From positions 5,704,001 through 5,768,000 of the forward strand of contig NZ_CP075691.1 in the NCBI RefSeq assembly GCF_020026305.1: a stretch of 64,000 nucleotides of DNA, in the 5' to 3' direction. Made by a program: the position numbers and the translations under genes. Shown here piece after piece: positions 1-11,761 of this stretch (positions within the stretch are counted from its first letter, which is position 1; each line of letters begins with the position of its first letter). Source of the DNA: Streptomyces sp. 135 (lineage in GTDB: Bacteria > Actinomycetota > Actinomycetes > Streptomycetales > Streptomycetaceae). The notes beneath the pieces were generated by a model that worked only from the letters and a program-made list of their open reading frames with translations, did not search any database and had not been told where the DNA came from.

Positions 1-143
1 TGCAGGTCACGCTCACCTGGCAGCTGGACAGGCGCGACGCCCAGGGCCGGCCGGACAGCGAACCCGACGGCACGCGGTCCGCCGCCCGCACCGACGGAGC
101 CCCCGGCGCCCGCCCCGCCGCGGATCCGGCCCCGCATGCCTGA
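1..143 (+). CDS. C-terminal tail of probable trypsin-co-occurring (TCO1/CU044_2847-type) protein
   Basis: Only the last 46 or so codons are inside the window, read in the frame that ends with TGA at 141-143. The visible start of the tail, VTLTWQLDRR, looks like the terminal beta strand I remember for CU044_2847 family proteins. The rest is a low-complexity Ala/Pro/Asp-rich tail. The next gene starts inside this one (ATG at 136, 8-base overlap), so the two are translationally coupled. TCO1 domains are known next to trypsin-like VMAP proteins in vWA-MoxR conflict systems, which matches the next four genes. The call rests on a very short stretch plus context, and the true start lies upstream. 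Confidence 0.5.
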   Translation, partial: QVTLTWQLDRRDAQGRPDSEPDGTRSAARTDGAPGARPAADPAPHA

Positions 144-2154
144 GCCCGCCCCCCGGCTCGACGCCCTCGCGCAGGCCGCCACCGTGCACCTCCTGGCGGC
201 CGACCACGACGGCGCCGGCGAGGCGCCGATGTGGGGCAGCGGGTTCTTCGTCGCGCCCGGGTGGGTGCTGACCTGCGCCCACGTGCTGCGGCCGCACCTC
301 GTCAGGGACCGCGAGCGGCCGTTCGCGGTGCGCGGCGCCGACCTCAACGACGGCATCCCCGTCGAAGCCCGCCTCGCGCACTGGCTGCTCAGCGACCACG
401 AGCGGTCCCTGGTGCCGCCCGACGAGGACCTCGCGCTGGTCCGGCTCCTCGGCGACCCCGCCGACCACGAGCACGAGTGCGTGTGGCTCGCCGACCGCGC
501 CGTACGCCCCTTCGGTGCCGTCGTGGCGTACGGCTACCGGCCGGACGAGAACGAGGCGAGTGCGGGGGCCAAGCCCTGGAGTGCCGACGCGGAGATCAAC
601 GTCCGCGACGACGGCGCCGGGCTGCGCTTCAAGCCCGACATCGCCTTCCCCAAGGGCGTCTCCGGCGGCCCGCTGCTCGATCCGCGCACCGGCGCCGTGG
701 TCGGCCTGATCAAGTCGCGCCGCAGGGACCGGGACGGCGGCATGGCCGTCGCGACGCTCGCGCTGCGGCGGTTCGGCGCCGCCTACCGCGAGGTGACGGC
801 CGCCCACGACCGCTGGCACGGCACGGCCCCGCGCGTCATCACCGGCGACAACTGGATCGACGAACAGCAGCGGCTGCTCGGCGCCGGCCGCCATGCCGGC
901 CCCGAGCTGTGGACCCCCAAGGACCGCCGCACCGCCCTCGCCCTCCTCGCCCGGCTGCCCGACCCGGGCGCCGCGCCCTCCGTGGCGAAGATCGTCCGCA
1001 AGGTCCGGGGCCGCAGGCCGGCCGGTGCCGCGCCCGCGCTGCTGACCTGGCGCGACGGCCATGGGCTGCTCTACGACGGGGCCCTGCCCGAGGACGCGCT
1101 GACGTTCCTGCACTACCTGCGGCTGGTCGCCGCGTACGTACGCAGCCGCGGCGGCGACGCCGAGCGGCTGGAGGCCTGGATCGCCGAGCGGCTCGGCGAG
1201 GACGACCGCACGCATCTGCACGCCCTGATCACCGACGCCCGGCTGCCCGACGAGCTGCGCCCCGAGCCCGGCGGCCCGGACCGCGTGGCCGTGCCCTATC
1301 CGGGGCCCGGCGAGGGGCCGACGGTGACCGTGCTGCTCGACCCGGTGATCAGCGTGACGCCCGCCCGCTTCCACTGGCAGATCTGGGTCAACCACAGCGG
1401 TCAGGAGGGCGAGTTCGAGCACGGCGACACGGAGATGGCCGCGGAGGACTACTCCGGAGAGGGCTTCCTGCCCGCCGAGCTCGTCCAGGCGCTGCGTGCC
1501 CCGCTCGGCCGCACCCTGCACCGGCTGGACGGCGAGGGCGCCCCGGTGCCGCTGGAATTCGCCCTGCCCGCCGAGCACTTCGACACCCAGGTGCACCGCT
1601 GGCAGTTCGACGACATGGCGAAGCTGTACGCCGCCGAGCACCTCGGCACCCAGCGGCGCGTCGTCCTGCGCGACCTCGCGCGCCGCGCGGATCCGGACAA
1701 CCCCGACTGGCACGAGCGCTGGAAGGCGATCGCCGCGGCGCGCGAGCTGGCGCCCGCCCGGGTCCCCGAGCGGGACAGCAGGCCGCAGGCCCGGCACTTC
1801 CAGAAGCTGCCGCACACCGTGATCCCGGTGATGTGCCGCCCCGCCGGACGCGGCGCGGGCCGCGACGCCATGCGGCTCGCCCTCGGCAGCGGCCACGGCG
1901 TCATGCTCTGGCACATCGAGGGACACGCCACGCGCGGCTGCCAGGAGTCCTGCGAGGACCTGCACGCGGGCGTGGAGCGACTGCTCGGCGCGGTGGGCTC
2001 GGTGGCCGAACTCCCGGACGTACTGCGGCACATACGGCAGGACATCAGCAGCGGCCGGAGCGACCGGCGCTGGGCGGAACCGCTCGCCCTCCTGTACGAC
2101 GACCCGCGCAGGCCGCTGCCGCCCGAGGACACGATGCCGGCGGACTCGCCGTGA
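136..2154 (+). CDS. Trypsin-like serine protease with C-terminal VMAP-C domain
   Basis: 672 aa. Residues 15-200 form a trypsin-like fold with a complete apparent triad: His49 (TCAHV), Asp98 (DEDLALV) and Ser176 (GVSGGPL). No signal peptide is visible, so it should act in the cytoplasm. Residues about 270-350 form a helical middle region resembling a small effector-associated or VMAP-M segment. From about residue 390 the pattern (a VTVLLDP strand, then PLEFALP, then several Trp-rich strands) matches the VMAP-C domain of vWA-MoxR associated proteins. In that family the protease is thought to be the effector, released or activated when the MoxR/vWA pair senses a trigger. The gene overlaps its upstream neighbour by 8 bases and precedes the MoxR gene by 289 bases. 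Protease identity is firm; the VMAP-C call is by remembered pattern. Confidence 0.82.
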   Translation: MPEPAPRLDALAQAATVHLLAADHDGAGEAPMWGSGFFVAPGWVLTCAHVLRPHLVRDRERPFAVRGADLNDGIPVEARLAHWLLSDHERSLVPPDEDLALVRLLGDPADHEHECVWLADRAVRPFGAVVAYGYRPDENEASAGAKPWSADAEINVRDDGAGLRFKPDIAFPKGVSGGPLLDPRTGAVVGLIKSRRRDRDGGMAVATLALRRFGAAYREVTAAHDRWHGTAPRVITGDNWIDEQQRLLGAGRHAGPELWTPKDRRTALALLARLPDPGAAPSVAKIVRKVRGRRPAGAAPALLTWRDGHGLLYDGALPEDALTFLHYLRLVAAYVRSRGGDAERLEAWIAERLGEDDRTHLHALITDARLPDELRPEPGGPDRVAVPYPGPGEGPTVTVLLDPVISVTPARFHWQIWVNHSGQEGEFEHGDTEMAAEDYSGEGFLPAELVQALRAPLGRTLHRLDGEGAPVPLEFALPAEHFDTQVHRWQFDDMAKLYAAEHLGTQRRVVLRDLARRADPDNPDWHERWKAIAAARELAPARVPERDSRPQARHFQKLPHTVIPVMCRPAGRGAGRDAMRLALGSGHGVMLWHIEGHATRGCQESCEDLHAGVERLLGAVGSVAELPDVLRHIRQDISSGRSDRRWAEPLALLYDDPRRPLPPEDTMPADSP

Positions 2155-2167
2155 GGGCGCGGCACGC

Positions 2168-2216
2168 GCGCGGGGGCGCCGACAGCGCCACGTCGCCACC
2201 CGCCCCGCCCCCGCGC
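2168..2216. terminator. Possible long-loop hairpin after the protease gene
   Basis: An 11-bp perfect inverted repeat (GCGCGGGGGCG / CGCCCCCGCGC) with a 27-base loop lies 14 bases after the protease stop. The loop is long and there is no T tract, so it may be an attenuator or chance pairing in GC-rich DNA. Confidence 0.25.
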
Positions 2217-2222
2217 ACACCT

Positions 2223-2306
2223 GTCGACGGCCCGGGCGCACCCGCCGACGGCCCGTGGGCAGCCGCCGACAGCCCGCGGACAGCCGCCGACAGCGGCGCA
2301 CCGCCA
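2223..2306. repeat. Imperfect 21-bp tandem repeat, four units
   Basis: The unit core G(C/T)CGAC(G/A)GCCC recurs at 2223, 2244, 2265 and 2286, a strict 21-base period, in the gap between the protease and MoxR genes. No supported gene covers it. The period equals two DNA turns, so phased protein binding is conceivable. Confidence 0.5.
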
Positions 2307-2443
2307 ACTCCCTGGCCGAAACCCGCTCTTGAGCGCCCCGTGCGTGGGTACATTCCCAAGGGCCCGTTGTGGGCGCGTACCGCCCCCGTCGGCCAGGACG
2401 TGGTCAGCCACCGAAGCCACCGACCGTCGACGAGGAGTACGCA

Positions 2444-3445
2444 GTGAGCGGATGGTTCATCTACGAGGGCGTCGGTGGTCCGGATCCGGACAGGATCGGG
2501 CGGCTGCCGGACCCGCCGCCCTGGCGAGCGTTCGACGCCACGCCGGTGGCGTACGAGGTCCCGGACATCGACTCGGCGACCCGCCGCCGCCTCGGTGACA
2601 GCAACGTCCCGATGTCCGTGCAGGGCTCCGAGGCGCTCGAACTCATCAACGCCGCCCTGTACTTGCGGCGCCCCCTCCTCGTCACCGGCGAGCCGGGCTC
2701 CGGCAAGAGCACCCTCGCGCACTCCCTCGCGTACGAACTGGGCCTCGGCCGGGTCCTCCAGTGGGCGATCGTCAGCCGCAGCGAGCTCAAGGACGGCCTC
2801 TACACCTACGACGCGATCGGCCGGCTCCAGGACAACCAGCTCGGCCGCGACCAAGCCGAGGACATCGGGCGCTATCTGCGGCTCGGGCCGCTCGGCACCG
2901 CGCTCATCGCCTCCGACCGGCCGCGCGTCCTGCTCATCGACGAGCTCGACAAGAGCGACATAGACCTGCCCAACGACCTCCTGAACGTCCTGGAGGAGGG
3001 CGAGTTCGGCATCCCCGAGCTGGAGCGGATCGCCGACCGGCCCGGGCAGGAGACCGTGCACGTCCTCACCGACGACGGCCGTCGCGTGCCGGTCACCCGG
3101 GGCCGGGTGCGCTGCCGCGCCTTCCCCGTCGTTGTTTTGACCAGCAACCGCGAGCGCGAGTTCCCCGGCCCGCTGCTGCGCCGCTGCGTCCCCCTCGACC
3201 TCGAACCGCCGCGCGACCAGCGCCTCGCCGCGATGGTCCTCGCGCACTTCGGGGCCGGTTCCTACGACACCAACCTCGACCTCGTCGACCAGTTCACGGA
3301 CGCCGAGTCGGACGGCGCGCTGCGCCCCACCGACCAGCTCCTGAACGCCATCTTCCTCGCCCAGCACGCCGCGCGGCAGCAGCCGGAGCGGCGCGAGGAG
3401 ATCGCCGGACTGCTGATGCGCCCACTCGACCGAGGGCCGCGGTGA
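2444..3445 (+). CDS. MoxR-family AAA+ ATPase
   Basis: 333 aa from the GTG at 2444, which has GAGGAG 6 bases upstream; a longer in-frame opening from 2369 lacks a ribosome site. Visible motifs are Walker A GEPGSGKST, Walker B VLLIDELDK, sensor-1 VVLTSN, and an Arg pair in LLRRCVPLDL typical of an arginine finger. MoxR ATPases work as ring chaperones together with a vWA-domain partner, loading metal or remodelling a client. Here the partner is the next gene, 4 bases downstream, whose N-terminal half carries a MIDAS motif. In ternary vWA-MoxR-VMAP systems the ATPase is proposed to hold the effector in check until a signal arrives. Function in this strain is inferred. Confidence 0.9.
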   Translation: MSGWFIYEGVGGPDPDRIGRLPDPPPWRAFDATPVAYEVPDIDSATRRRLGDSNVPMSVQGSEALELINAALYLRRPLLVTGEPGSGKSTLAHSLAYELGLGRVLQWAIVSRSELKDGLYTYDAIGRLQDNQLGRDQAEDIGRYLRLGPLGTALIASDRPRVLLIDELDKSDIDLPNDLLNVLEEGEFGIPELERIADRPGQETVHVLTDDGRRVPVTRGRVRCRAFPVVVLTSNREREFPGPLLRRCVPLDLEPPRDQRLAAMVLAHFGAGSYDTNLDLVDQFTDAESDGALRPTDQLLNAIFLAQHAARQQPERREEIAGLLMRPLDRGPR

Positions 3446-3449
3446 CGGC

Positions 3450-6400
3450 ATGACCTCCGCCCCGCACCGTGCCGACGCCGTGAGCGAAGCGCTCGCGGCG
3501 CTCGTCGCGCGCCTGCGGGACGCGGAACTCGACCCCACGGTCCAGGAACTGGCCGACTCCTTGTGGCTCGCCCGGCAGGTCACCGCGGGCGGCGGCGCCG
3601 AAGAGGGATCCGCCGTCGACCCGCCGCCGCCCGTACGGCCCGGCGGCGGCGCGCACGACGACGCCGGGCTGCCCCACCGCACACCCGCCCGCCCCGCGCC
3701 GAGGGCGGCGCCCGGCCGTGCCCCGCGCCCGGCTGGTCGTACCAGGGAGGGCGGTGACGGTGAGCGGCGCGACGGCGTCCCCGTGCAGGTCCCGACCGCC
3801 GCCGTCCTGCCCGACCCGCTGGCCCTCCAGCGCGCCCTGCGGCCCTTGCAGCGCTACCGGCCGCCCGTGCGCCCCGTACCGCGCGACCTCGACGAACAGG
3901 CCACCGCGGAGCGGGCCGCCGACACCGGGCTCGTGGTCCCCGTCCTGCGGCACGCCCGGCGGCGCGAGGCCCGACTCCTGCTCGTCATGGACCTCTCCAC
4001 GTCCACGGTCGTGTGGGAGCAGGCGCTCGGCGAGCTGCGGCACGTGTGCGAGCGGGCGGGTGCCTTCCGCGAGGTGCAGGTGCAGTTCCTGCACGAGGGC
4101 GAGGACGGCCGCCCCGGATACGCGGCGACGGCCCGCCCCGGCGCCGCCCTCCAGGACCCCGAGCGCCTCAGCGACCCCACCGGCAGCAGGCTGGCCCTCG
4201 TCCTGAGCGACTGCGCGGGCCCGATGTGGCGCAGCGGCCGGATGCAGCGGCTGCTGTACCGCTGGGGCTCGCTCGCGCCGGTCGCCGTGGTGCAGCCCCT
4301 GCCGCAGCGCATGTGGCGGCGTACGCACTTACCCGCGCGGCGAGGTCACCTGCACCGCCGGGAGGGCCCCGCCGGACGCCTGGAGTTCGAGCCCGCGAGC
4401 GGGGGCGGGCCGCGGCGGCGGGGCATCCCCGTGCCGGTGCTCGCGCTGCGGAGGTCCTCCGTGGAGGGCTGGGCCAAGCTGGTGTCCGGCGCCACCGGGC
4501 AGTGCCTGGAGGCGGCCGCGGGCCACGCGGAGGCCGGGCACGGGCCGTCCGGGGCGCCGGTGCGGGCCCGTCAGGAGGTCGGCGGCCGGGAGCGGGTGCG
4601 GGCGTTCCGGCGCACGGCGTCGCCCGCGGCCTGGCAGCTCGCCGTGTACCTCTCGGCGGTGCCGACGATCCTGCCCGTGATGCAGCTCGTGCAGCGCGCC
4701 ATGCTGGCGGGCAGCGGGCCCGAGGTCCTCGCGGAGGTGCTGCTCGGCGGACTTCTCAAGCGCCGCGAGCGCGACGAGGACCCCGAGGTGCTGGGCTACG
4801 AGTTCCTGGAGGGCGTGGAGGAGGAGCTGCTCGGCCATCTGGAGCGTGACGACGCGCTGCTGTTGCAGAAGCACTGCTCGGACTATCTGGAGCGGCGGTT
4901 CGGGCGCAGCGTGCACAACTTCCCCGCCACCGCCGTGGCCCTGCTCGGCGACACCGGGGAGCCCGCGGGCCCGCCGGGCGCGGGGACCGGCGCCGACCAC
5001 CCCGGGCTGCGCGCCTTCGCCGAGGTCTCCGGAGAGGTCCTGCGGCGCTTCCTGCCGAGTACGCGCGCGCAGGGGCGCGAGCCCGACAGGAACGACCCCG
5101 AGGCGCTGCGGGAGGCCGCCGCGGAAGCCCGCGAGCGGTACGGGCGGGAGCGCCGGGCACGGGAACTGGACTACGCGGTGGAGCTGCTGGAGACGGCGGC
5201 CGCGCGGTGCGGCGGCGCTCTCCTCGACGGGGTGCTGACCGACCTCGGCGAGACGCTGTTCCTGCGCTGGGGCGCGCGGCACGGCGTGGCGGATCTGCAC
5301 GAGGCGCTGCGGGTCGCCGCCGGGGTCGGGGACCGGTCGGCGCGGGCACGGCTGCTGCTCGGCGGGACGCTCATCGCGGTCGCCGAGGAGGTGGAGCGCT
5401 CCGGCCCGGCGTCGGCCGCGCTGCCGGACGCGGTGCGGGAGCACGCGGAGCGCCTGGGCGGACAGGGCCACCTGGCGGGGTTCTGGGCGGAGTACCTCCT
5501 GTTGAACAACGTGACGGACGTGCTCTCGTCGGTCAGGGCCCACGTGGGCGACGACGCCGCCCATCCGGGCTGGCCGGCGCAGCGGGCCCTCGCGGGCGTG
5601 CTCGACCGCCTCGCGGTGGTGGCGGCGCGGCTGGTGGCGGCGGGAGTCGAGGTGGCGGGGACGGGCACGCGGACCCGGAGCCGGAGCGGCGCGCAGCGCG
5701 GGTCGCGCGGCGGTTCCCCGGCCGCGTACGCGCGAAGCGGCCCGGACGCGCTCTCCGTGAAACTGGTGCGGCAGCTCACGGACGAGGCCGCTCACCGCGT
5801 CGTCGAGCAGCGCCGCATCGACCGGGGCCTCGGCGTCACCCCGATGTCGGACGAGGACGAGCGGCAGTACGCCCGCGCCGTCATCGCGCAGCTCCTGGAG
5901 GAGCACGCGCGTGCCCGACCGGACGCCGGGCGCACGCCGTTGGACGCGGAGACCGAGAGGCGGTACGCGGACGCCGTGTACGCGGCGCTGTACGACGCGC
6001 GGGGCACGGAGGGCGGGGAGGGCGGAAAGACGGACGGCTCCGTCACGGAGGCCCACCTGAGGGGCGTGAGCATCACCGGCCCCGGCGGCTACGCCCCACC
6101 GGAGAGCCCCGGCCCCCGCGCGGGCCGCCTCGACCTCGCGGACGCCGCCTTCCACGGCAGCACGCTCGGCAGGGCCCGCGCCGACGCGGGGGAGCACGGC
6201 TCGCGGGACGCCGGCCGGGGCGCGGACGCGGGACGGGACCGCTCCGCCGCGGAGCCCCGCCCCCAGGACGTCTACGTCGACTTCATGCGCCGCGCCATCA
6301 GCACCACCGGCGTCCTCACCCTCGGCCCGGAGCAGGCCGCCGGGTACCTCCAGCGCGGACGGCTGCGCAAGCGGCTGGCGCGGCACTACACCGGGCGCGG

Positions 6401-7382
6401 CGAGATCCCCAGGGACGACCTCGCGGGCCGGTCCGTGCCGGACGCCAGCGGCGTCGCCGTCGACGCCTGCGACGACTTCCGCGAGGCCCTGGCGCGCGAC
6501 GGCTTCGACGCGGCCGAGCGGACCCGCGCCTGGCTCGACCTGGCCGACGCCCTGCAACTGGCCCGCGCCGACGACCCGGACGAGGGCGGGCAGCGGCTCA
6601 TCCTCTCCGCCGTGGACGAGGCGCTCGCGGCGGCCGACGGCGACCACGCCCTGATCCTGGAGTGCCACGCGCGCGGCGCGGACGTGCACTGGGCGCGGTA
6701 TGTCAGCTCGGGCCGCGACGAGTACCGCCACCTGGCGGTCGAGCGCTGGGAGATGGCGCTCCCCCTGGCCCCGAGGGACGATCCGGCCAGGGCGCTCCTG
6801 CTGCACCGCCTGGGCGCCGCCCTCGCGCAGCGCGGCGTCGACACGCACTCGGCGGCCGACACCGACGCCGCCGTGCGCCATATGCGCGAGGCGGTCGAGG
6901 CGACCCCGACGGCGGACCCGGAGTTCGACGGGCGGCGCATGCACCTGGCGACCGCCTACCTCGCCCGTTTCGAGGTGCAGGAGGTCCTCGCCGACCTCTA
7001 CGAGGCGGACTGGCTGCTCGGCGCCGTGACCCGCTCCCTCGCCGCCCCGGACCTCGCCGCGTACAGCTGGCTGCGGCGCGGCGACGTGGCGACCCGGCTC
7101 GCCGAGCGCACCGACGCCCTCGCGCAGCTGCGCCGTGCCGACGAGTACTACCGCCGCGCAGCCGAGACCGCCGCCGAGGCGGGGTACGCCGACCTCGCCG
7201 CCGAGGCCCACCACTCGCGCGGCGAGACGCTGGAGCAGCTGGAGGAGCCCGAGCTGGCGCTCCTGGAGTACCGCAAGGCCGAGCCGCACCTCCCGGAATC
7301 CCCGCCCCCCGCGGTCGCCGTCCGCGCCGAGGAGCTGCGCGCCGCCATCGCCCGCCTAGAGTCCCGCCCGGGCGAGGCGTGA
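3450..7382 (+). CDS. SAV_2336-type vWA-like protein with long TPR-rich C-terminus
   Basis: 1310 aa. After a poorly conserved N-terminus (1-110), residues 120-470 match the SAV_2336 N-terminal-domain pattern. They contain a vWA-like MIDAS sequence, D181-L-S-T-S185, at the end of a hydrophobic strand (RLLLVMD). The domain probably pairs with the MoxR ATPase encoded 4 bases upstream. Residues 550-1310 are helical and Ala/Arg/Glu-rich. The stretch from about 1010 to the end has TPR-like spacing (A-L-R-Y-A patterns), suggesting a peptide-binding scaffold. A TTA leucine codon at 4329-4331 (residue 294) is in frame; such codons make translation depend on the bldA tRNA. The stop overlaps the start of the 61-aa peptide gene (GTGA). 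Confidence 0.8.
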   Translation: MTSAPHRADAVSEALAALVARLRDAELDPTVQELADSLWLARQVTAGGGAEEGSAVDPPPPVRPGGGAHDDAGLPHRTPARPAPRAAPGRAPRPAGRTREGGDGERRDGVPVQVPTAAVLPDPLALQRALRPLQRYRPPVRPVPRDLDEQATAERAADTGLVVPVLRHARRREARLLLVMDLSTSTVVWEQALGELRHVCERAGAFREVQVQFLHEGEDGRPGYAATARPGAALQDPERLSDPTGSRLALVLSDCAGPMWRSGRMQRLLYRWGSLAPVAVVQPLPQRMWRRTHLPARRGHLHRREGPAGRLEFEPASGGGPRRRGIPVPVLALRRSSVEGWAKLVSGATGQCLEAAAGHAEAGHGPSGAPVRARQEVGGRERVRAFRRTASPAAWQLAVYLSAVPTILPVMQLVQRAMLAGSGPEVLAEVLLGGLLKRRERDEDPEVLGYEFLEGVEEELLGHLERDDALLLQKHCSDYLERRFGRSVHNFPATAVALLGDTGEPAGPPGAGTGADHPGLRAFAEVSGEVLRRFLPSTRAQGREPDRNDPEALREAAAEARERYGRERRARELDYAVELLETAAARCGGALLDGVLTDLGETLFLRWGARHGVADLHEALRVAAGVGDRSARARLLLGGTLIAVAEEVERSGPASAALPDAVREHAERLGGQGHLAGFWAEYLLLNNVTDVLSSVRAHVGDDAAHPGWPAQRALAGVLDRLAVVAARLVAAGVEVAGTGTRTRSRSGAQRGSRGGSPAAYARSGPDALSVKLVRQLTDEAAHRVVEQRRIDRGLGVTPMSDEDERQYARAVIAQLLEEHARARPDAGRTPLDAETERRYADAVYAALYDARGTEGGEGGKTDGSVTEAHLRGVSITGPGGYAPPESPGPRAGRLDLADAAFHGSTLGRARADAGEHGSRDAGRGADAGRDRSAAEPRPQDVYVDFMRRAISTTGVLTLGPEQAAGYLQRGRLRKRLARHYTGRGEIPRDDLAGRSVPDASGVAVDACDDFREALARDGFDAAERTRAWLDLADALQLARADDPDEGGQRLILSAVDEALAAADGDHALILECHARGADVHWARYVSSGRDEYRHLAVERWEMALPLAPRDDPARALLLHRLGAALAQRGVDTHSAADTDAAVRHMREAVEATPTADPEFDGRRMHLATAYLARFEVQEVLADLYEADWLLGAVTRSLAAPDLAAYSWLRRGDVATRLAERTDALAQLRRADEYYRRAAETAAEAGYADLAAEAHHSRGETLEQLEEPELALLEYRKAEPHLPESPPPAVAVRAEELRAAIARLESRPGEA

Positions 7383-7564
7383 GCGCCCCCGCCGCCGCGA
7401 GCGGCATACCCCTGCCCGAGCTGCCGCCCCTCGCCGCCCTCGCGCCCCACGCGGACCGCTCCGGCCACCCCGTGTACGCCGCCCTGGTCGCCGACCTCGT
7501 CGAGGGCGCGGCGGCGGCAGCCGCCGACGGCCCGGTCGTCGCCCGGTACGAGGACGCGCCATGA
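7379..7564 (+). CDS. 61-aa peptide, candidate precursor for the FxsB-type enzyme
   Basis: The GTG at 7379 overlaps the stop of the vWA gene (GTGA) and the TGA at 7562-7564 overlaps the ATG of the radical SAM gene (ATGA), so all three are coupled. The product starts with a Pro/Leu-rich stretch (IPLPELPPLAALAP), continues with an amphipathic helix-like core (HPVYAALVADLVEGAAAA) and ends VVARYEDAP. FxsB enzymes are named for partners ending in FxSxx-COOH; this peptide does not. Its only C-terminal aromatic is Tyr57, in a Tyr-Glu-Asp triplet, a plausible crosslink site. Size and position fit a ribosomal precursor (RiPP). The role is inferred from context only, and it could instead be a small partner protein. 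Confidence 0.6.
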   Translation: MSAPAAASGIPLPELPPLAALAPHADRSGHPVYAALVADLVEGAAAAAADGPVVARYEDAP

Positions 7565-8778
7565 GCCACCCCGCCTGGCCGCACGCCACCCTGGACCCGG
7601 CCGCCCACCGGCCCGTCCCCTTCCGCCAGTTCGTCCTGAAGGTCCACGGCCGCTGCAACCTCGACTGCTCGTACTGCTACGTCTACCGCTCCCCGGACGC
7701 CAGTTGGCGCGAGCGCCCGGCCCGCGCCGACGCCACCGTCATGCGCCGCGCAGCGGCTCGCGTCGCCGAACACGTCACCCGGCACCGGCTGACCGCCATA
7801 CGCGTCGAACTGCACGGCGGGGAACCGCTGTTGACCGGTCCCGACGCCGTCATCGCGTACGCCCGTGAGATACGGGACGCCGTGCCCGCGGGCTGCGAGG
7901 TCACCGCCACCGTCCAGACCAACGGCACCCTGCTCACCCGCGCCGCCCTCGACCGCGTCGCCGCCGCCGGGATCCGTGTCGGCCTCAGCCTCGACGGCGG
8001 CCGCGCCGCCCACAACGCCCGCCGCACCGACCACGCGGGCCGCCCGGCCTGGCCCGCCGCACGCCACGCGGCGCGACTGCTCGCCGCGCGCCCCCGGACG
8101 TACGCCGGGATCCTCTGCACCATCGACCTCGCCGCCGACCCCGTCGACGTGTACGAGTCGCTGCTCGGCCTCGGCCCGCCGGGCGTCGACTTCCTGCTGC
8201 CGCACGGCAATTGGGCCGCCCCGCCGCCCGGCGTCGCGGCCGAGGAGCGCCCGGGCAGGCACCGGCCGCGCCCCACCCCGTACGGCGACTGGCTCGCCAC
8301 GCTCTTCGACGCCTGGTGGGATGCCGGACGGCTGCGCACCCGCGTCCGCCTCTTCCGGGAGATCGCCGCGCTCCTGCTCGGCCTGCCCAGCACCGCCGAG
8401 GCCGTCGGGCTCTCACCGCTCGCCGCGGTCGTCGTCGACACGGACGGCGCGATCGAGCAGGTCGACTCGTTGAAGTCGGCGTACGCGGGAGCCCCCGCCA
8501 CCGGCCTCGACGTCTTCCGGCACGGCTTCGACGAAGCCCTGCGCCACCCCGGCGTCGCCGCCCGCCAGCTGGGCCTGGAGGGCCGCTCCGAGGAGTGCCG
8601 CGCCTGCCCCGTGGTGCGTGTCTGCGGCGGCGGCAACTACGTCCACCGCTACGCCCCAGGGAGCGGCTTCCTGCACCCCAGCGTCTACTGCGCCGACCTG
8701 GAACGGCTGATTCGGCACATAGCCGACCGCCTTTCCACCGCAGCGGCCGCTTCCGATGCCCCAAGTCGTCTATTCTGA
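7561..8778 (+). CDS. fxsB: FxsB-family radical SAM/SPASM peptide maturase
   Basis: 405 aa. The radical SAM cluster motif C32-x3-C36-x2-C39 (RCNLDCSYCY) follows a typical FRQFVLKVHG lead-in. A SPASM-type C-terminus has Cys346, Cys349, Cys355 and Cys377 (ECRACPVVRVCGGGNYVHRY, then VYCADL). The ELHGGEP motif for SAM binding is present. Length and motifs match FxsB-type enzymes, which install carbon-carbon crosslinks (cyclophanes) in short peptides using three Fe-S clusters and SAM. The likely substrate is the 61-aa peptide encoded immediately upstream with a 4-base overlap. Enzyme class is seen directly; the exact crosslink is unknown. It lacks the C-terminal beta-hydroxylase extension found in some homologues. 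Confidence 0.88.
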   Translation: MSHPAWPHATLDPAAHRPVPFRQFVLKVHGRCNLDCSYCYVYRSPDASWRERPARADATVMRRAAARVAEHVTRHRLTAIRVELHGGEPLLTGPDAVIAYAREIRDAVPAGCEVTATVQTNGTLLTRAALDRVAAAGIRVGLSLDGGRAAHNARRTDHAGRPAWPAARHAARLLAARPRTYAGILCTIDLAADPVDVYESLLGLGPPGVDFLLPHGNWAAPPPGVAAEERPGRHRPRPTPYGDWLATLFDAWWDAGRLRTRVRLFREIAALLLGLPSTAEAVGLSPLAAVVVDTDGAIEQVDSLKSAYAGAPATGLDVFRHGFDEALRHPGVAARQLGLEGRSEECRACPVVRVCGGGNYVHRYAPGSGFLHPSVYCADLERLIRHIADRLSTAAAASDAPSRLF

Positions 8779-8872: not shown

Positions 8873-11761
8873 ATGACCGGACAACCCGGGGGTGACCGGC
8901 CGCACGTCACCGTGGTCTTCGCCGGCCAGAGCGAGTCCTGGGCCAAGTGGATCGAGCACCAGATCCGCGCCGCGGGACGCGCCACCACCCTGGTCCGCTG
9001 GAACCCGCTGCTGCGCCCGCCCGCCGCCGACGCCGTCACCGGCCTCCTCGAAGCCCCCGGCCGCATCCTGCTCCTCATCGACGACTGGTACGAGAGGCTC
9101 GGCGCCGACCGCTTCGAGGCCTGGGCCGCGGCCCTGCGCGAGGTGCTGCCCGCCCACCGCGACCGCATCGCCGCCGTCAGCATCACCGCGCAGCCGCTGC
9201 CCGAGGCCGTCATAGCCCTGGCCCCCGTCGAACTGCGCGGACTGCGTCCCGAGGCCGCCCGCTCCCGCGTCCTGGAGTGCGCGGGCATCGCCGCCCCGGC
9301 CGCCCTCGTCGCCCTCGCCCGCGGCCCCCGCTTCCCCGACGACCTGCCCGAGGTGTGGAACGCGCAGCGCCGCAACCGCCGCTTCACCGGCCGCACCGGC
9401 CTCCTGGAGAAGGTCCACGACACCTTCGCGGCGGCGGGCCCCGGGGGCTGCTCCGTCGCCCTGCACGGCCCCGGCGGCATCGGCAAGACCCAGCTCGCCC
9501 TCGAATACGTCCACCGGTTCGCGGGCGACTACGACATCGTGTGGTGGGTCACCGCGGGCAGCCGGGTGACCGCGCGCGAGCAGTTCGCCGCCCTCGCGCC
9601 ACAGCTCGGCATCGAGGCCTCCGGACAGCTCGAACCCGTCATCGACGCCGTACGGCGCGAACTGGCCGGCACCGCACGCCCCTGGCTGCTCGTCCTGGAC
9701 GGCGCGGACGCCCCCGAGAAGGTGCTCGACCTCCTGCCCGAGGGACGCGGCCACGTCCTGATCACCACCCTGCGCGCGGAGTGGGCGGCCCACACCGAGG
9801 AAGCCGTCCTCGTACCGCCCTTCCGGCGCAGCGAGAGCGTCGCCTTCGTCGGCCGCAGGGCGGCCCGGCTCACCGAGAACGAGGCGGACGGGCTCGCCGA
9901 GGCCGTCGAGGACATGCCGCTGCTCCTCGACCAGATGGCGGCCTGGCTCGACGTCACGCCCACCGCCGACGTGCCGGGCTACATCAAGGACATCCGGGGC
10001 GGCAAGCCCGACCGGTTCGGCATCGTGGAGTCCCGCGACTACCCCGAGTCCTTCCAGGTCGCCTGGGCCAAGACCCTCAACACCCTGCGCGACGGCGCCG
10101 CCCCCGCCTGGCAGCTCCTGAACCTCCTCGCCTGCTTCTCCCCGGACGTCGTGCCGGTCCGGCTCCTGCAGACCTCGCGCCACGGAGACCTGCCGCGCCC
10201 GCTCGCCGAGCTGGTCTCCGAGCCGAGCAGCTGGAACACCGCGCTGCGCAGACTCTCCGAGATCACCTCGATGCGCGTCGAGTACGAACCGGGGCGCATG
10301 GACATCCAGCGCGTCAGCACCCTGCGCATGCACCGCCTCTTCCACCGGTACGTCGTCGGCATCCAGTCCCCCAAGGACCGCGAGCGCTACTCCGAGGCGG
10401 CCCGCAAGGTCCTCGTCACCGCCGACCCGCGCGACCCCGCGTCCCCCGCGAACTGGGCACGCTACGCCGAGCTCATCCCGCACCTCGGGCCGTCGGGCGC
10501 GCTGGAGTCCGAGGACGACGACGTCCGCGACCTCGTCCTCAACTGCATCGACTACCTCCGTATGCGCGGCGAGTACCGCGACGGCTGGTGGCTCAGCCGG
10601 CAGGCCGTCGAGCACTGGCGCGCCACCTCGGGCGCCACGCACCGCTCGGTGCTCGTCGCGGTCCACCAGCAGGCCAACATGCTGCGCCGCCTCGGCCGTT
10701 ACGCCGAGGCGGAGGCCGTCGGCCGCGAGACCCTGGACCGGCTCACGGCCGAGGAGGACACCCGCCCCATCGAGGTGATCCGCGCCAGGGACGGCCTCGG
10801 CGGCACGCTCATGGCCCTCGGGCGGTACGAGGAGGCGCGCGGGCTCTTCGAAGCCGCCGCCGACCGGGCGGCGGCGGAGCTGGGCGGCGAGAACGTACCG
10901 CGCACCCTGACGATCCGCAGCAACCTCGCCGTCTCCCTCGGCCTCCAGGGCCGCTACACCGACGCCCTCGCCCTGCACCGCAGGATCCTGGAGGCCCGCG
11001 TCGAACTCCTCGGCGGCAAGAACCCGCTGACCCTGTACTCCGCGCTGCGCACCGCCTGGATGCTGCGGCTCCTCGGCAACTACACCGAGGCCATGGACAT
11101 CCAGGGCCACAACTCCCGGCTGCACAGCCAGGTCCTGGACCGCAACCACAGCCAGACCCTGCACGCCGAGCACAACCTCGCCCTGTGCGCCCGCCGGACG
11201 GGCGACCTCCAGTTCGCCCTGGCCATGATGCGCAAGGTCCGCGAGAAGCTGCTGCGCCGACGGGGCACCCAGGACCCCGACGCGCTCATGGTCTCCTGCG
11301 ACTACGCCATGCTCCTGCGCCAGCTCGACCGCCCCGACGAGGCCCGCACGCTGGCCGAGACCACCGCCTCGCTGTACGAGGCACAGCTGGGCGACAGCCA
11401 TCCGTACGCCATAGGGGCGCGGGCCAACGTCGGCATGCTGCTGCGGGACGCGGGCGAGCTGAGGGCGGCGCTCGCCGTGACCCTGCGGGCCCGCGGCCAG
11501 ATGGCACGGGCGGTGGGCCCGGACCACCCCTGGACGCTGGGGTGCGCCCTGAACGCCGCCGCGACGCTCGCCCTCACCGGCGACACCGAGGCCGCCGCGC
11601 AGCTCGGCCAGGACGCGGCGGAGCGCTCCGCCCGCACGCTGGGCGACTCGCACGGCCTGACCCGCGACCTCAGGACGGGCCTCGCCCTGGACCGTGCCGA
11701 GCCGCCGGAGGCCTCCGAACGCGGCCGCCTGTACTGGGACTTCGAGCCCCAGCCCATCTGA
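8873..11761 (+). CDS. TIR-like / NB-ARC / TPR protein (FxSxx-COOH system TPR protein type)
   Basis: 962 aa from ATG 8873, preceded by GAGAAGGAGG. Residues 8-135 have a TIR-like alternating pattern (HVTVVFAGQSES, then ILLLIDDWYE). Residues 165-500 are an STAND/NB-ARC ATPase: P-loop GPGGIGKT (199-206), Walker B WLLVLDGAD, a GLPL-like turn (DMPLLLDQMAAWL), and an MH-type motif (LRMHRLFHRYV) near 485. Residues 540-950 are roughly ten tetratricopeptide repeats (GRYAEAEAVGRETLD and similar). This architecture resembles plant and animal NLR receptors and the FxSxx-COOH system TPR protein. It starts 94 bases after fxsB; a TTGACG hexamer at 8786 hints at its own promoter. TPRs would bind the trigger or the modified peptide. 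Whether the TIR-like domain is an active NADase cannot be judged by eye. Confidence 0.85.
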   Translation: MTGQPGGDRPHVTVVFAGQSESWAKWIEHQIRAAGRATTLVRWNPLLRPPAADAVTGLLEAPGRILLLIDDWYERLGADRFEAWAAALREVLPAHRDRIAAVSITAQPLPEAVIALAPVELRGLRPEAARSRVLECAGIAAPAALVALARGPRFPDDLPEVWNAQRRNRRFTGRTGLLEKVHDTFAAAGPGGCSVALHGPGGIGKTQLALEYVHRFAGDYDIVWWVTAGSRVTAREQFAALAPQLGIEASGQLEPVIDAVRRELAGTARPWLLVLDGADAPEKVLDLLPEGRGHVLITTLRAEWAAHTEEAVLVPPFRRSESVAFVGRRAARLTENEADGLAEAVEDMPLLLDQMAAWLDVTPTADVPGYIKDIRGGKPDRFGIVESRDYPESFQVAWAKTLNTLRDGAAPAWQLLNLLACFSPDVVPVRLLQTSRHGDLPRPLAELVSEPSSWNTALRRLSEITSMRVEYEPGRMDIQRVSTLRMHRLFHRYVVGIQSPKDRERYSEAARKVLVTADPRDPASPANWARYAELIPHLGPSGALESEDDDVRDLVLNCIDYLRMRGEYRDGWWLSRQAVEHWRATSGATHRSVLVAVHQQANMLRRLGRYAEAEAVGRETLDRLTAEEDTRPIEVIRARDGLGGTLMALGRYEEARGLFEAAADRAAAELGGENVPRTLTIRSNLAVSLGLQGRYTDALALHRRILEARVELLGGKNPLTLYSALRTAWMLRLLGNYTEAMDIQGHNSRLHSQVLDRNHSQTLHAEHNLALCARRTGDLQFALAMMRKVREKLLRRRGTQDPDALMVSCDYAMLLRQLDRPDEARTLAETTASLYEAQLGDSHPYAIGARANVGMLLRDAGELRAALAVTLRARGQMARAVGPDHPWTLGCALNAAATLALTGDTEAAAQLGQDAAERSARTLGDSHGLTRDLRTGLALDRAEPPEASERGRLYWDFEPQPI

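What the first reader, a model, noticed from the sequence alone, without database searches (positions are those of the whole stretch)
7379..7564. Unannotated 61-aa candidate RiPP precursor without the FxSxx terminus
A GTG-started reading frame fits exactly between two genes with 4-base overlaps on both sides, which is hard to get by chance. FxsB partners normally end FxSxx; this one ends VVARYEDAP, with Tyr57 and Asp59 as the only C-terminal aromatic/acidic pair. It could define a divergent substrate class and a different crosslink.
Basis: partly seen in the sequence, partly recalled or inferred. Interest (0 to 1): 0.8.

Follow-up and report, generated by a model that had tools for sequence, protein, structure and literature searches.

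The report
YxD cyclophane peptide precursor in Streptomyces
A tiny, conserved Streptomyces gene wedged between two larger ones almost certainly encodes a peptide whose tail (Tyr-Glu-Asp) is closed into a small ring by the radical enzyme next door; this tail type and this cross-link are already known, so it is a divergent member of a known class sitting in a predicted anti-invader operon.

Summary
In detail: a GTG-started 61-aa frame lies at 7379-7564 with 4-base overlaps on both sides. The overlaps alone prove little, since the same geometry occurs at five places in the window. Conservation settles it. The same peptide, in the same place, precedes the same radical SAM gene in dozens of Streptomyces genomes. 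Its last residues [VA]A[HRYQ]YEDAP are the most conserved part, and substitutions show coding constraint only in this frame. It is a RiPP precursor, but not a new class. It matches NCBIfam NF041709 "YxD-tail cyclophane-containing RiPP peptide" over the whole profile, though below the curated cut-off, while close clade-mates pass it. The enzyme is an FxsB-family maturase inside a well-supported clade whose partners nearly all end in (Tyr/His/Phe)-x-Asp. For a YxD enzyme, YxdB, a C3(Tyr)-Cβ(Asp) cross-link has been published, which predicts Tyr57-Asp59 here. The operon (trypsin-VMAP, MoxR, SAV_2336/vWA-TPR, peptide, rSAM, TIR-AP-ATPase-TPR) matches the peptide-processing VMAP conflict systems described in 2020, except that the peptide is YxD instead of FxSxx. 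Cross-link and biological role are inferred. Interest is modest; the less explored points are the His-x-Asp, Phe-x-Asp and multi-core relatives.

The parts
7379..7564 (+). YxD-class precursor peptide gene, 61 aa, GTG start (MSAPAAASGIPLPELPPLAALAPHADRSGHPVYAALVADLVEGAAAAAADGPVVARYEDAP)
7406..7504 (+). predicted leader: P-L-P-E near the start and the conserved HPV[LY]xAxLAxL segment (approximate bounds)
   Evidence: alignment of 26 homologues, (near-invariant L12, P13, P31, plus the HPV-L pattern); shared with FxN/FxS precursors
7535..7561 (+). predicted core VVARYEDAP; Tyr57-Glu58-Asp59 (7547-7555) the predicted three-residue cyclophane
   Evidence: last 10 codons pN 0.075 vs pS 0.289; motif statistics; chemistry by analogy with YxdB
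7561..8778 (+). radical SAM/SPASM maturase of the FxsB family (YxD clade), CX3CX2C at residues 32-39
   Evidence: TIGR04269 431 bits against a cut-off of 370; tree; motif; nearest solved sequence ChlB 9gm3, E=8.7e-72
136..2154 (+). VMAP: trypsin-like peptidase domain plus VMAP-C
   Evidence: PF20028 E=6e-37, PF13365 E=8e-14
2313..2437 (+). conserved non-coding leader before MoxR: TGGCCGAAA (2313), GGGTACATT (2346), GAGGAG ribosome-binding site (2432); promoter reading is inferred
   Evidence: DNA alignment, coordinates
2444..3445 (+). MoxR-type AAA+ ATPase, probable start GTG 2444; WFIYEG and PPWRAF motifs of VMAP-system MoxR proteins, Walker A GEPGSGKS
3450..7382 (+). SAV_2336 N-terminal-domain protein (vWA-like, DLSTS at residue 181) with a C-terminal helical/TPR-like region
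   Evidence: NF041121 432 bits; MIDAS-like motif; weak Pfam VWA_CoxE; weak fold matches to vWA domains
8873..11761 (+). TIR - AP-ATPase (NB-ARC) - TPR protein, FxSxx-COOH system TPR family
   Evidence: NF040586 745 bits; TIR_2, NB-ARC and TPR_12; P-loop GPGGIGKT

Best explanation
The 7379-7564 frame encodes the precursor of a YxD-type triceptide. Its N-terminal ~50 residues are a leader recognised by the FxsB-family radical SAM/SPASM enzyme encoded immediately downstream. That enzyme abstracts a hydrogen from Cβ of Asp59 and joins that carbon to the ring (C3) of Tyr57, giving a three-residue cyclophane (-2 Da) at the C-terminus. The gene sits in a translationally coupled operon of a VMAP/MoxR/vWA conflict system with a TIR-AP-ATPase-TPR protein. 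The finished peptide probably serves as a signal or effector ligand of that system after leader removal by an unidentified peptidase. Shown: the gene, its conservation, the enzyme family, the clade-motif match and the operon. Inferred: the cross-link, leader cleavage and role.
For: Full-profile match to the YxD-tail RiPP family; all 26 aligned homologues match it, and clade-mates G019 and G173 pass its cut-off. The homologous peptide precedes the homologous enzyme throughout the clade. Among found partners [YHF]-x-D is nearly universal, with A at -2 and [AGS]P after (the D is part of the selection pattern). The enzyme clade (71 rows, SH-aLRT 98) holds 68 such partners and is sister to an FxN/FxS clade. 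Purifying selection is strongest on the last 10 codons. This is the only FxsB over the cut-off and the only YxD hit in the genome, and no FxSxx peptide passes its cut-off. The operon is conserved and matches the published description. YxdB makes C3(Tyr)-Cβ(Asp).
Against: The peptide scores 24.8 bits, under the curated 55 for NF041709, because of an Ala-rich linker and divergent leader. In the closest relative, S. huasconensis (L039), the frame is broken by indels in that linker; the gene upstream has indels too, so an assembly fault is likely but not proved. No chemistry was measured. No zincin peptidase, part of the published system, was found near.
Confidence: 0.85

Rival explanations
1. Precursor and enzyme are real, but the modification differs: for example a link to Glu58, a Tyr C-O link, or epimerisation/oxidation elsewhere in VVARYEDAP.
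For: No chemistry can be read from sequence; FxsB-type enzymes are diverse, and relatives replace Tyr with His or Phe and Glu with Asp, Ser or Gly.
Against: The X2 position varies (E/D/S/G) while Asp at +2 and an aromatic at 0 are kept, as expected for an i to i+2 cyclophane; the characterised YxdB makes Tyr-Asp.
Confidence: 0.12
2. The short frame is not a gene; it is a by-product of G+C-rich sequence and the spacing of two coupled genes.
For: The frame is open far upstream, and the same overlap geometry occurs at four other places in the window; the frame is broken in L039.
Against: Homologous peptide in the same place across the clade, pN/pS below 1 only in this frame, family profile match.
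Confidence: 0.02
3. The enzyme's true substrate lies elsewhere (an FxSxx peptide) and this peptide is a relic or decoy.
For: The enzyme scores as FxsB, above its cut-off.
Against: No FxSxx-COOH peptide over the cut-off in the complete genome; YxD clade enzymes, including those with peptides above the NF041709 cut-off, score the same way; tree by motif.
Confidence: 0.03

Closest known systems
YxD triceptides (YxdA/YxdB; NCBIfam NF041709)
   Same: Tail [Y]-x-D near the C-terminus, FxsB-family radical SAM/SPASM partner next door, full-length profile match
   Different: Scores below the curated cut-off; Ala-rich linker; ends exactly at YEDAP. YxdB's own sequence (WP_226048651.1) could not be fetched for a direct comparison.
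FxSxx-COOH peptides and FxsB (TIGR04268/TIGR04269; MscB-type Phe-Ser triceptides)
   Same: Same enzyme family; homologous leader with LPD/LPE and HPVL in the FxN/FxS sister group; same TPR gene downstream
   Different: Tail is Tyr-x-Asp instead of Phe-x-Ser; 12 of 26 aligned homologues also hit TIGR04268, but the window peptide does not
Actinobacterial VMAP-ternary conflict systems with peptide-processing genes (Kaur et al. 2020, PMC7159879)
   Same: Order VMAP, MoxR, vWA-TPR, peptide, radical SAM-SPASM, TIR-AP-ATPase-TPR; MoxR motifs WxhapG and PsWRxa
   Different: Peptide types named there are FxSxx, RxD, acidic and FtsH-type, not YxD; no zincin peptidase near
YhhB / HaaB triceptide maturases
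   Same: Related radical SAM/SPASM enzymes acting on Tyr or His
   Different: YhhB model scores 313 bits under a cut-off of 445; products link to Arg or Ala, not Asp

Membership tests
YxD-tail cyclophane RiPP peptide (NF041709) | match across the whole profile | tested here: met
   1-47 of 47, E=1.6e-5
YxD-tail cyclophane RiPP peptide (NF041709) | score above curated cut-off (55 bits) | tested here: not met
   24.8 bits; clade-mates G019 62.6 and G173 68.2 pass. So not an NF041709 equivalog by NCBI's rule, though it works like one.
YxD-tail cyclophane RiPP peptide (NF041709) | Y-x-D tail | tested here: met
   RYEDAP-COOH
Triceptide (three-residue cyclophane RiPP) | aromatic-x-residue motif in a conserved core with a radical SAM/SPASM gene adjacent | tested here: met
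Triceptide (three-residue cyclophane RiPP) | aryl-Cβ cross-link in the product | not testable with these tools
   needs co-expression, MS and NMR
FxSxx-COOH peptide (TIGR04268) | C-terminal FxSxx and score over the cut-off | tested here: not met
   tail YEDAP; no TIGR04268 hit for this peptide and none over the cut-off in the genome
FxsB-family maturase (TIGR04269) | score over the cut-off (370) and radical SAM CX3CX2C | tested here: met
   431 bits; CNLDCSYC at residue 32
YhhB maturase (NF041707) | score over the cut-off (445) | tested here: not met
   312.7 bits
VMAP-ternary conflict system | VMAP-C protein, then MoxR with WxhapG and PsWRxa, in that order | tested here: met
   PF20028 E=6e-37; WFIYEG, PPWRAF
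VMAP-ternary conflict system | vWA third component | tested here: inconclusive
   SAV_2336 domain 432 bits, DLSTS motif, VWA_CoxE E=0.009; Foldseek best vWA match E=0.04, none under 0.001
VMAP-ternary conflict system | with radical SAM type: separate downstream TIR-AP-ATPase-TPR gene | tested here: met
   NF040586 and TIR_2/NB-ARC/TPR; conserved in relatives
VMAP-ternary conflict system | zincin-like peptidase in the peptide-processing module | tested here: not met
   no HExxH in a plausible gene in the first 24 kb; divergent zincins would be missed

The most novel reading that the evidence does not exclude
The YxD peptides are a further, unlisted ligand type of VMAP conflict systems, and within their enzyme clade the aromatic partner has switched (Tyr, His, Phe, all to Asp) and cores have been multiplied (FSD, FAD, HED in one precursor), so the clade would make His-Asp and Phe-Asp cyclophanes that have not been characterised and would use the cyclised tail as the trigger of a TIR-AP-ATPase.
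Probability: 0.25. Interest if true: 0.6.

Novelty: new member of a known kind. Interest (0 to 1): 0.32.

Why it matters
It corrects a naming gap: FxsB-family enzymes in Streptomyces often serve YxD peptides that automated models miss or score low. It ties the YxD triceptides to VMAP/MoxR/vWA-TIR-STAND conflict operons, which makes the unknown biological role of triceptides testable by genetics.

Tried and rejected
A chance frame was rejected by conservation and codon-phased substitution, although the overlap geometry itself proved uninformative. A YhhB-type system was rejected because the score is under the cut-off. An FxSxx partner elsewhere in the genome was searched for; none passes the cut-off. 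A 98-aa frame between VMAP and MoxR with the same double overlap was followed as a possible second peptide and set aside: its conservation is not codon-phased and looks like a leader/promoter element. The vWA assignment by fold search was only suggestive. PADLOC gave only superficial hits (pVip, mad8). The key paper (Sugiyama 2022, 10.1021/jacs.2c00521) is not held, so its result is taken from the review PMC11002830.

Full report
OBSERVATION. The frame is as described: GTG 7379, stop 7562-7564, 61 residues, GTGA shared with the end of the 3450-7382 gene and ATGA shared with the start of the 7561-8778 gene. The argument from the overlaps alone is weak. Scanning the window for a 40-120-codon frame with such an overlap at both ends between long open frames gave five places on the two strands, one of them this one, and the frame stays open for more than 700 codons because the sequence is G+C-rich. 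One of the look-alikes (2151-2447) is conserved, but its changes are not codon-phased (2076, 2030, 1695 over 100 nt). It serves as a control showing that geometry is not evidence.

CONSERVATION. The maturase found relatives in 228 of 393 Streptomyces genomes at E<=1e-60 and 67 named loci. Upstream of them lies a homologous peptide. Among 48 near-clade rows including the window (some genomes fetched twice) every one has the upstream 4-base overlap, and 45 the downstream one. The exceptions are L012/L091 (one genome, an 11-base overlap with a longer enzyme frame) and L069. Nineteen distinct 50-codon precursors give pS 0.309 and pN 0.156 in the annotated frame, and ratios above 1 in the other two frames. 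In the last ten codons pN is 0.075 and pS 0.289. Differences by codon position are 1433, 1098 and 2392. The tail is the constrained part.

WHAT IT IS. The peptide matches one family only, NF041709 (YxD-tail cyclophane-containing RiPP peptide), positions 1-47 of 47, E=1.6e-5, 24.8 bits against a cut-off of 55. All 26 aligned homologues match the same model, the best at 3e-23. In a genus sample 9 of 150 genomes pass the cut-off, including clade-mates G019 and G173 that end AYYEDAP. The window's peptide is thus a low-scoring outlier of that group. Around the motif, position -2 is Ala in 66 of 67, position 0 Tyr 60, His 5, Phe 2, position +1 Glu/Asp/Ser/Gly, and Pro follows at +4 in 62 (Asp at +2 was required by the search pattern, so its 67/67 is not independent; L077 FDD and L121 FEN were found by profile only).

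THE ENZYME. It is a TIGR04269 FxsB-family radical SAM/SPASM protein (431 bits, cut-off 370), below the YhhB cut-off, with CNLDCSYC. In a tree of 124 maturases the window lies in a clade of 71 (SH-aLRT 98) in which 68 have an aromatic-x-Asp partner and none an FxS or FxN partner by the automatic label. The sister group has partners ending WGF[NTDQ][NS][AS]F or NAFDSG. Maturases with canonical ...FNSAL peptides lie outside both. The tree used a quick search, and the placement of long branches is unsure. The complete genome has a single FxsB over the cut-off, one YxD peptide and no FxSxx-COOH peptide over the cut-off.

MECHANISM. Triceptide enzymes join an aromatic ring carbon to Cβ of the residue two positions on. 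YxdB makes C3(Tyr)-Cβ(Asp) and MscB makes C4(Phe)-Cβ(Ser) (PMC11002830). By that analogy the product here is a Tyr57-Asp59 cyclophane with loss of two hydrogens. The variable X2 and fixed ends of the motif fit this. It was not measured.

CONTEXT. Upstream are a trypsin-VMAP-C protein (136-2154), a MoxR ATPase carrying the WFIYEG and PPWRAF motifs said to mark VMAP-system MoxR proteins, and a SAV_2336-domain protein with a DLSTS motif. Downstream is a TIR-NB-ARC-TPR protein. The order is conserved in YxD relatives. Kaur et al. [quoted passage not shown] YxD is not among their listed peptide types. Their zincin peptidase was not found here; the VMAP trypsin-like domain is a possible substitute (inference). 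The vWA assignment is plausible but inconclusive.

VERDICT. Observation confirmed; interpretation right about a precursor and about Tyr57/Asp59, wrong about a new class or new cross-link. New member of a known kind, divergent in sequence.

Noticed in passing
window 2151-2447: A 98-codon frame between VMAP and MoxR also has 4-base overlaps on both sides, but conservation is not codon-phased; it looks like a conserved leader/promoter (TGGCCGAAA 2313, GGGTACATT 2346, GAGGAG 2432). MoxR probably starts at GTG 2444, not at the longer ORF's 2369.
   Followed up: yes
L023 and L027, just upstream of the maturase: Precursors with several cores after one leader: AYFSDAP ... AYFADTP, and in L023 also SHEDVP; Phe and His in place of Tyr.
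   Followed up: partly
L029 and L037, upstream of the maturase: Precursor frame with the whole leader-plus-core unit duplicated in tandem (two YHED units in L029; YMD/YGD units in L037).
   Followed up: partly
L029, L060, L062, L069, L086, L102 (His-Glu-Asp); L065 (Phe-Glu-Asp): Natural His-x-Asp and Phe-x-Asp variants in the same enzyme clade, candidates for uncharacterised cyclophanes.
   Followed up: partly
L032, L034, L036, L038, L107, L111-L139 group: Sister group of FxsB-family enzymes whose peptides mostly end WGFxNAF (Phe-x-Asn), not FxSxx.
   Followed up: partly
L039:3690-3876: In S. huasconensis HST28 the precursor linker and the gene upstream carry several small indels that break the frames, while the maturase is intact; draft assembly fault or decay.
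   Followed up: partly
L083 and L166 (same locus): Maturase with 92% identity from about residue 172 on, but its first ~155 residues and the precursor region do not align; assembly fault or degraded copy.
   Followed up: no
L012 and L091, between precursor and maturase: The maturase frame is open for a further ~750 bases upstream to an ATG overlapping the precursor end: an N-terminal extension or an insertion.
   Followed up: no
G000:C1:7404211-7404879: A second VMAP-C gene elsewhere in the same genome; its neighbours were not examined.
   Followed up: no
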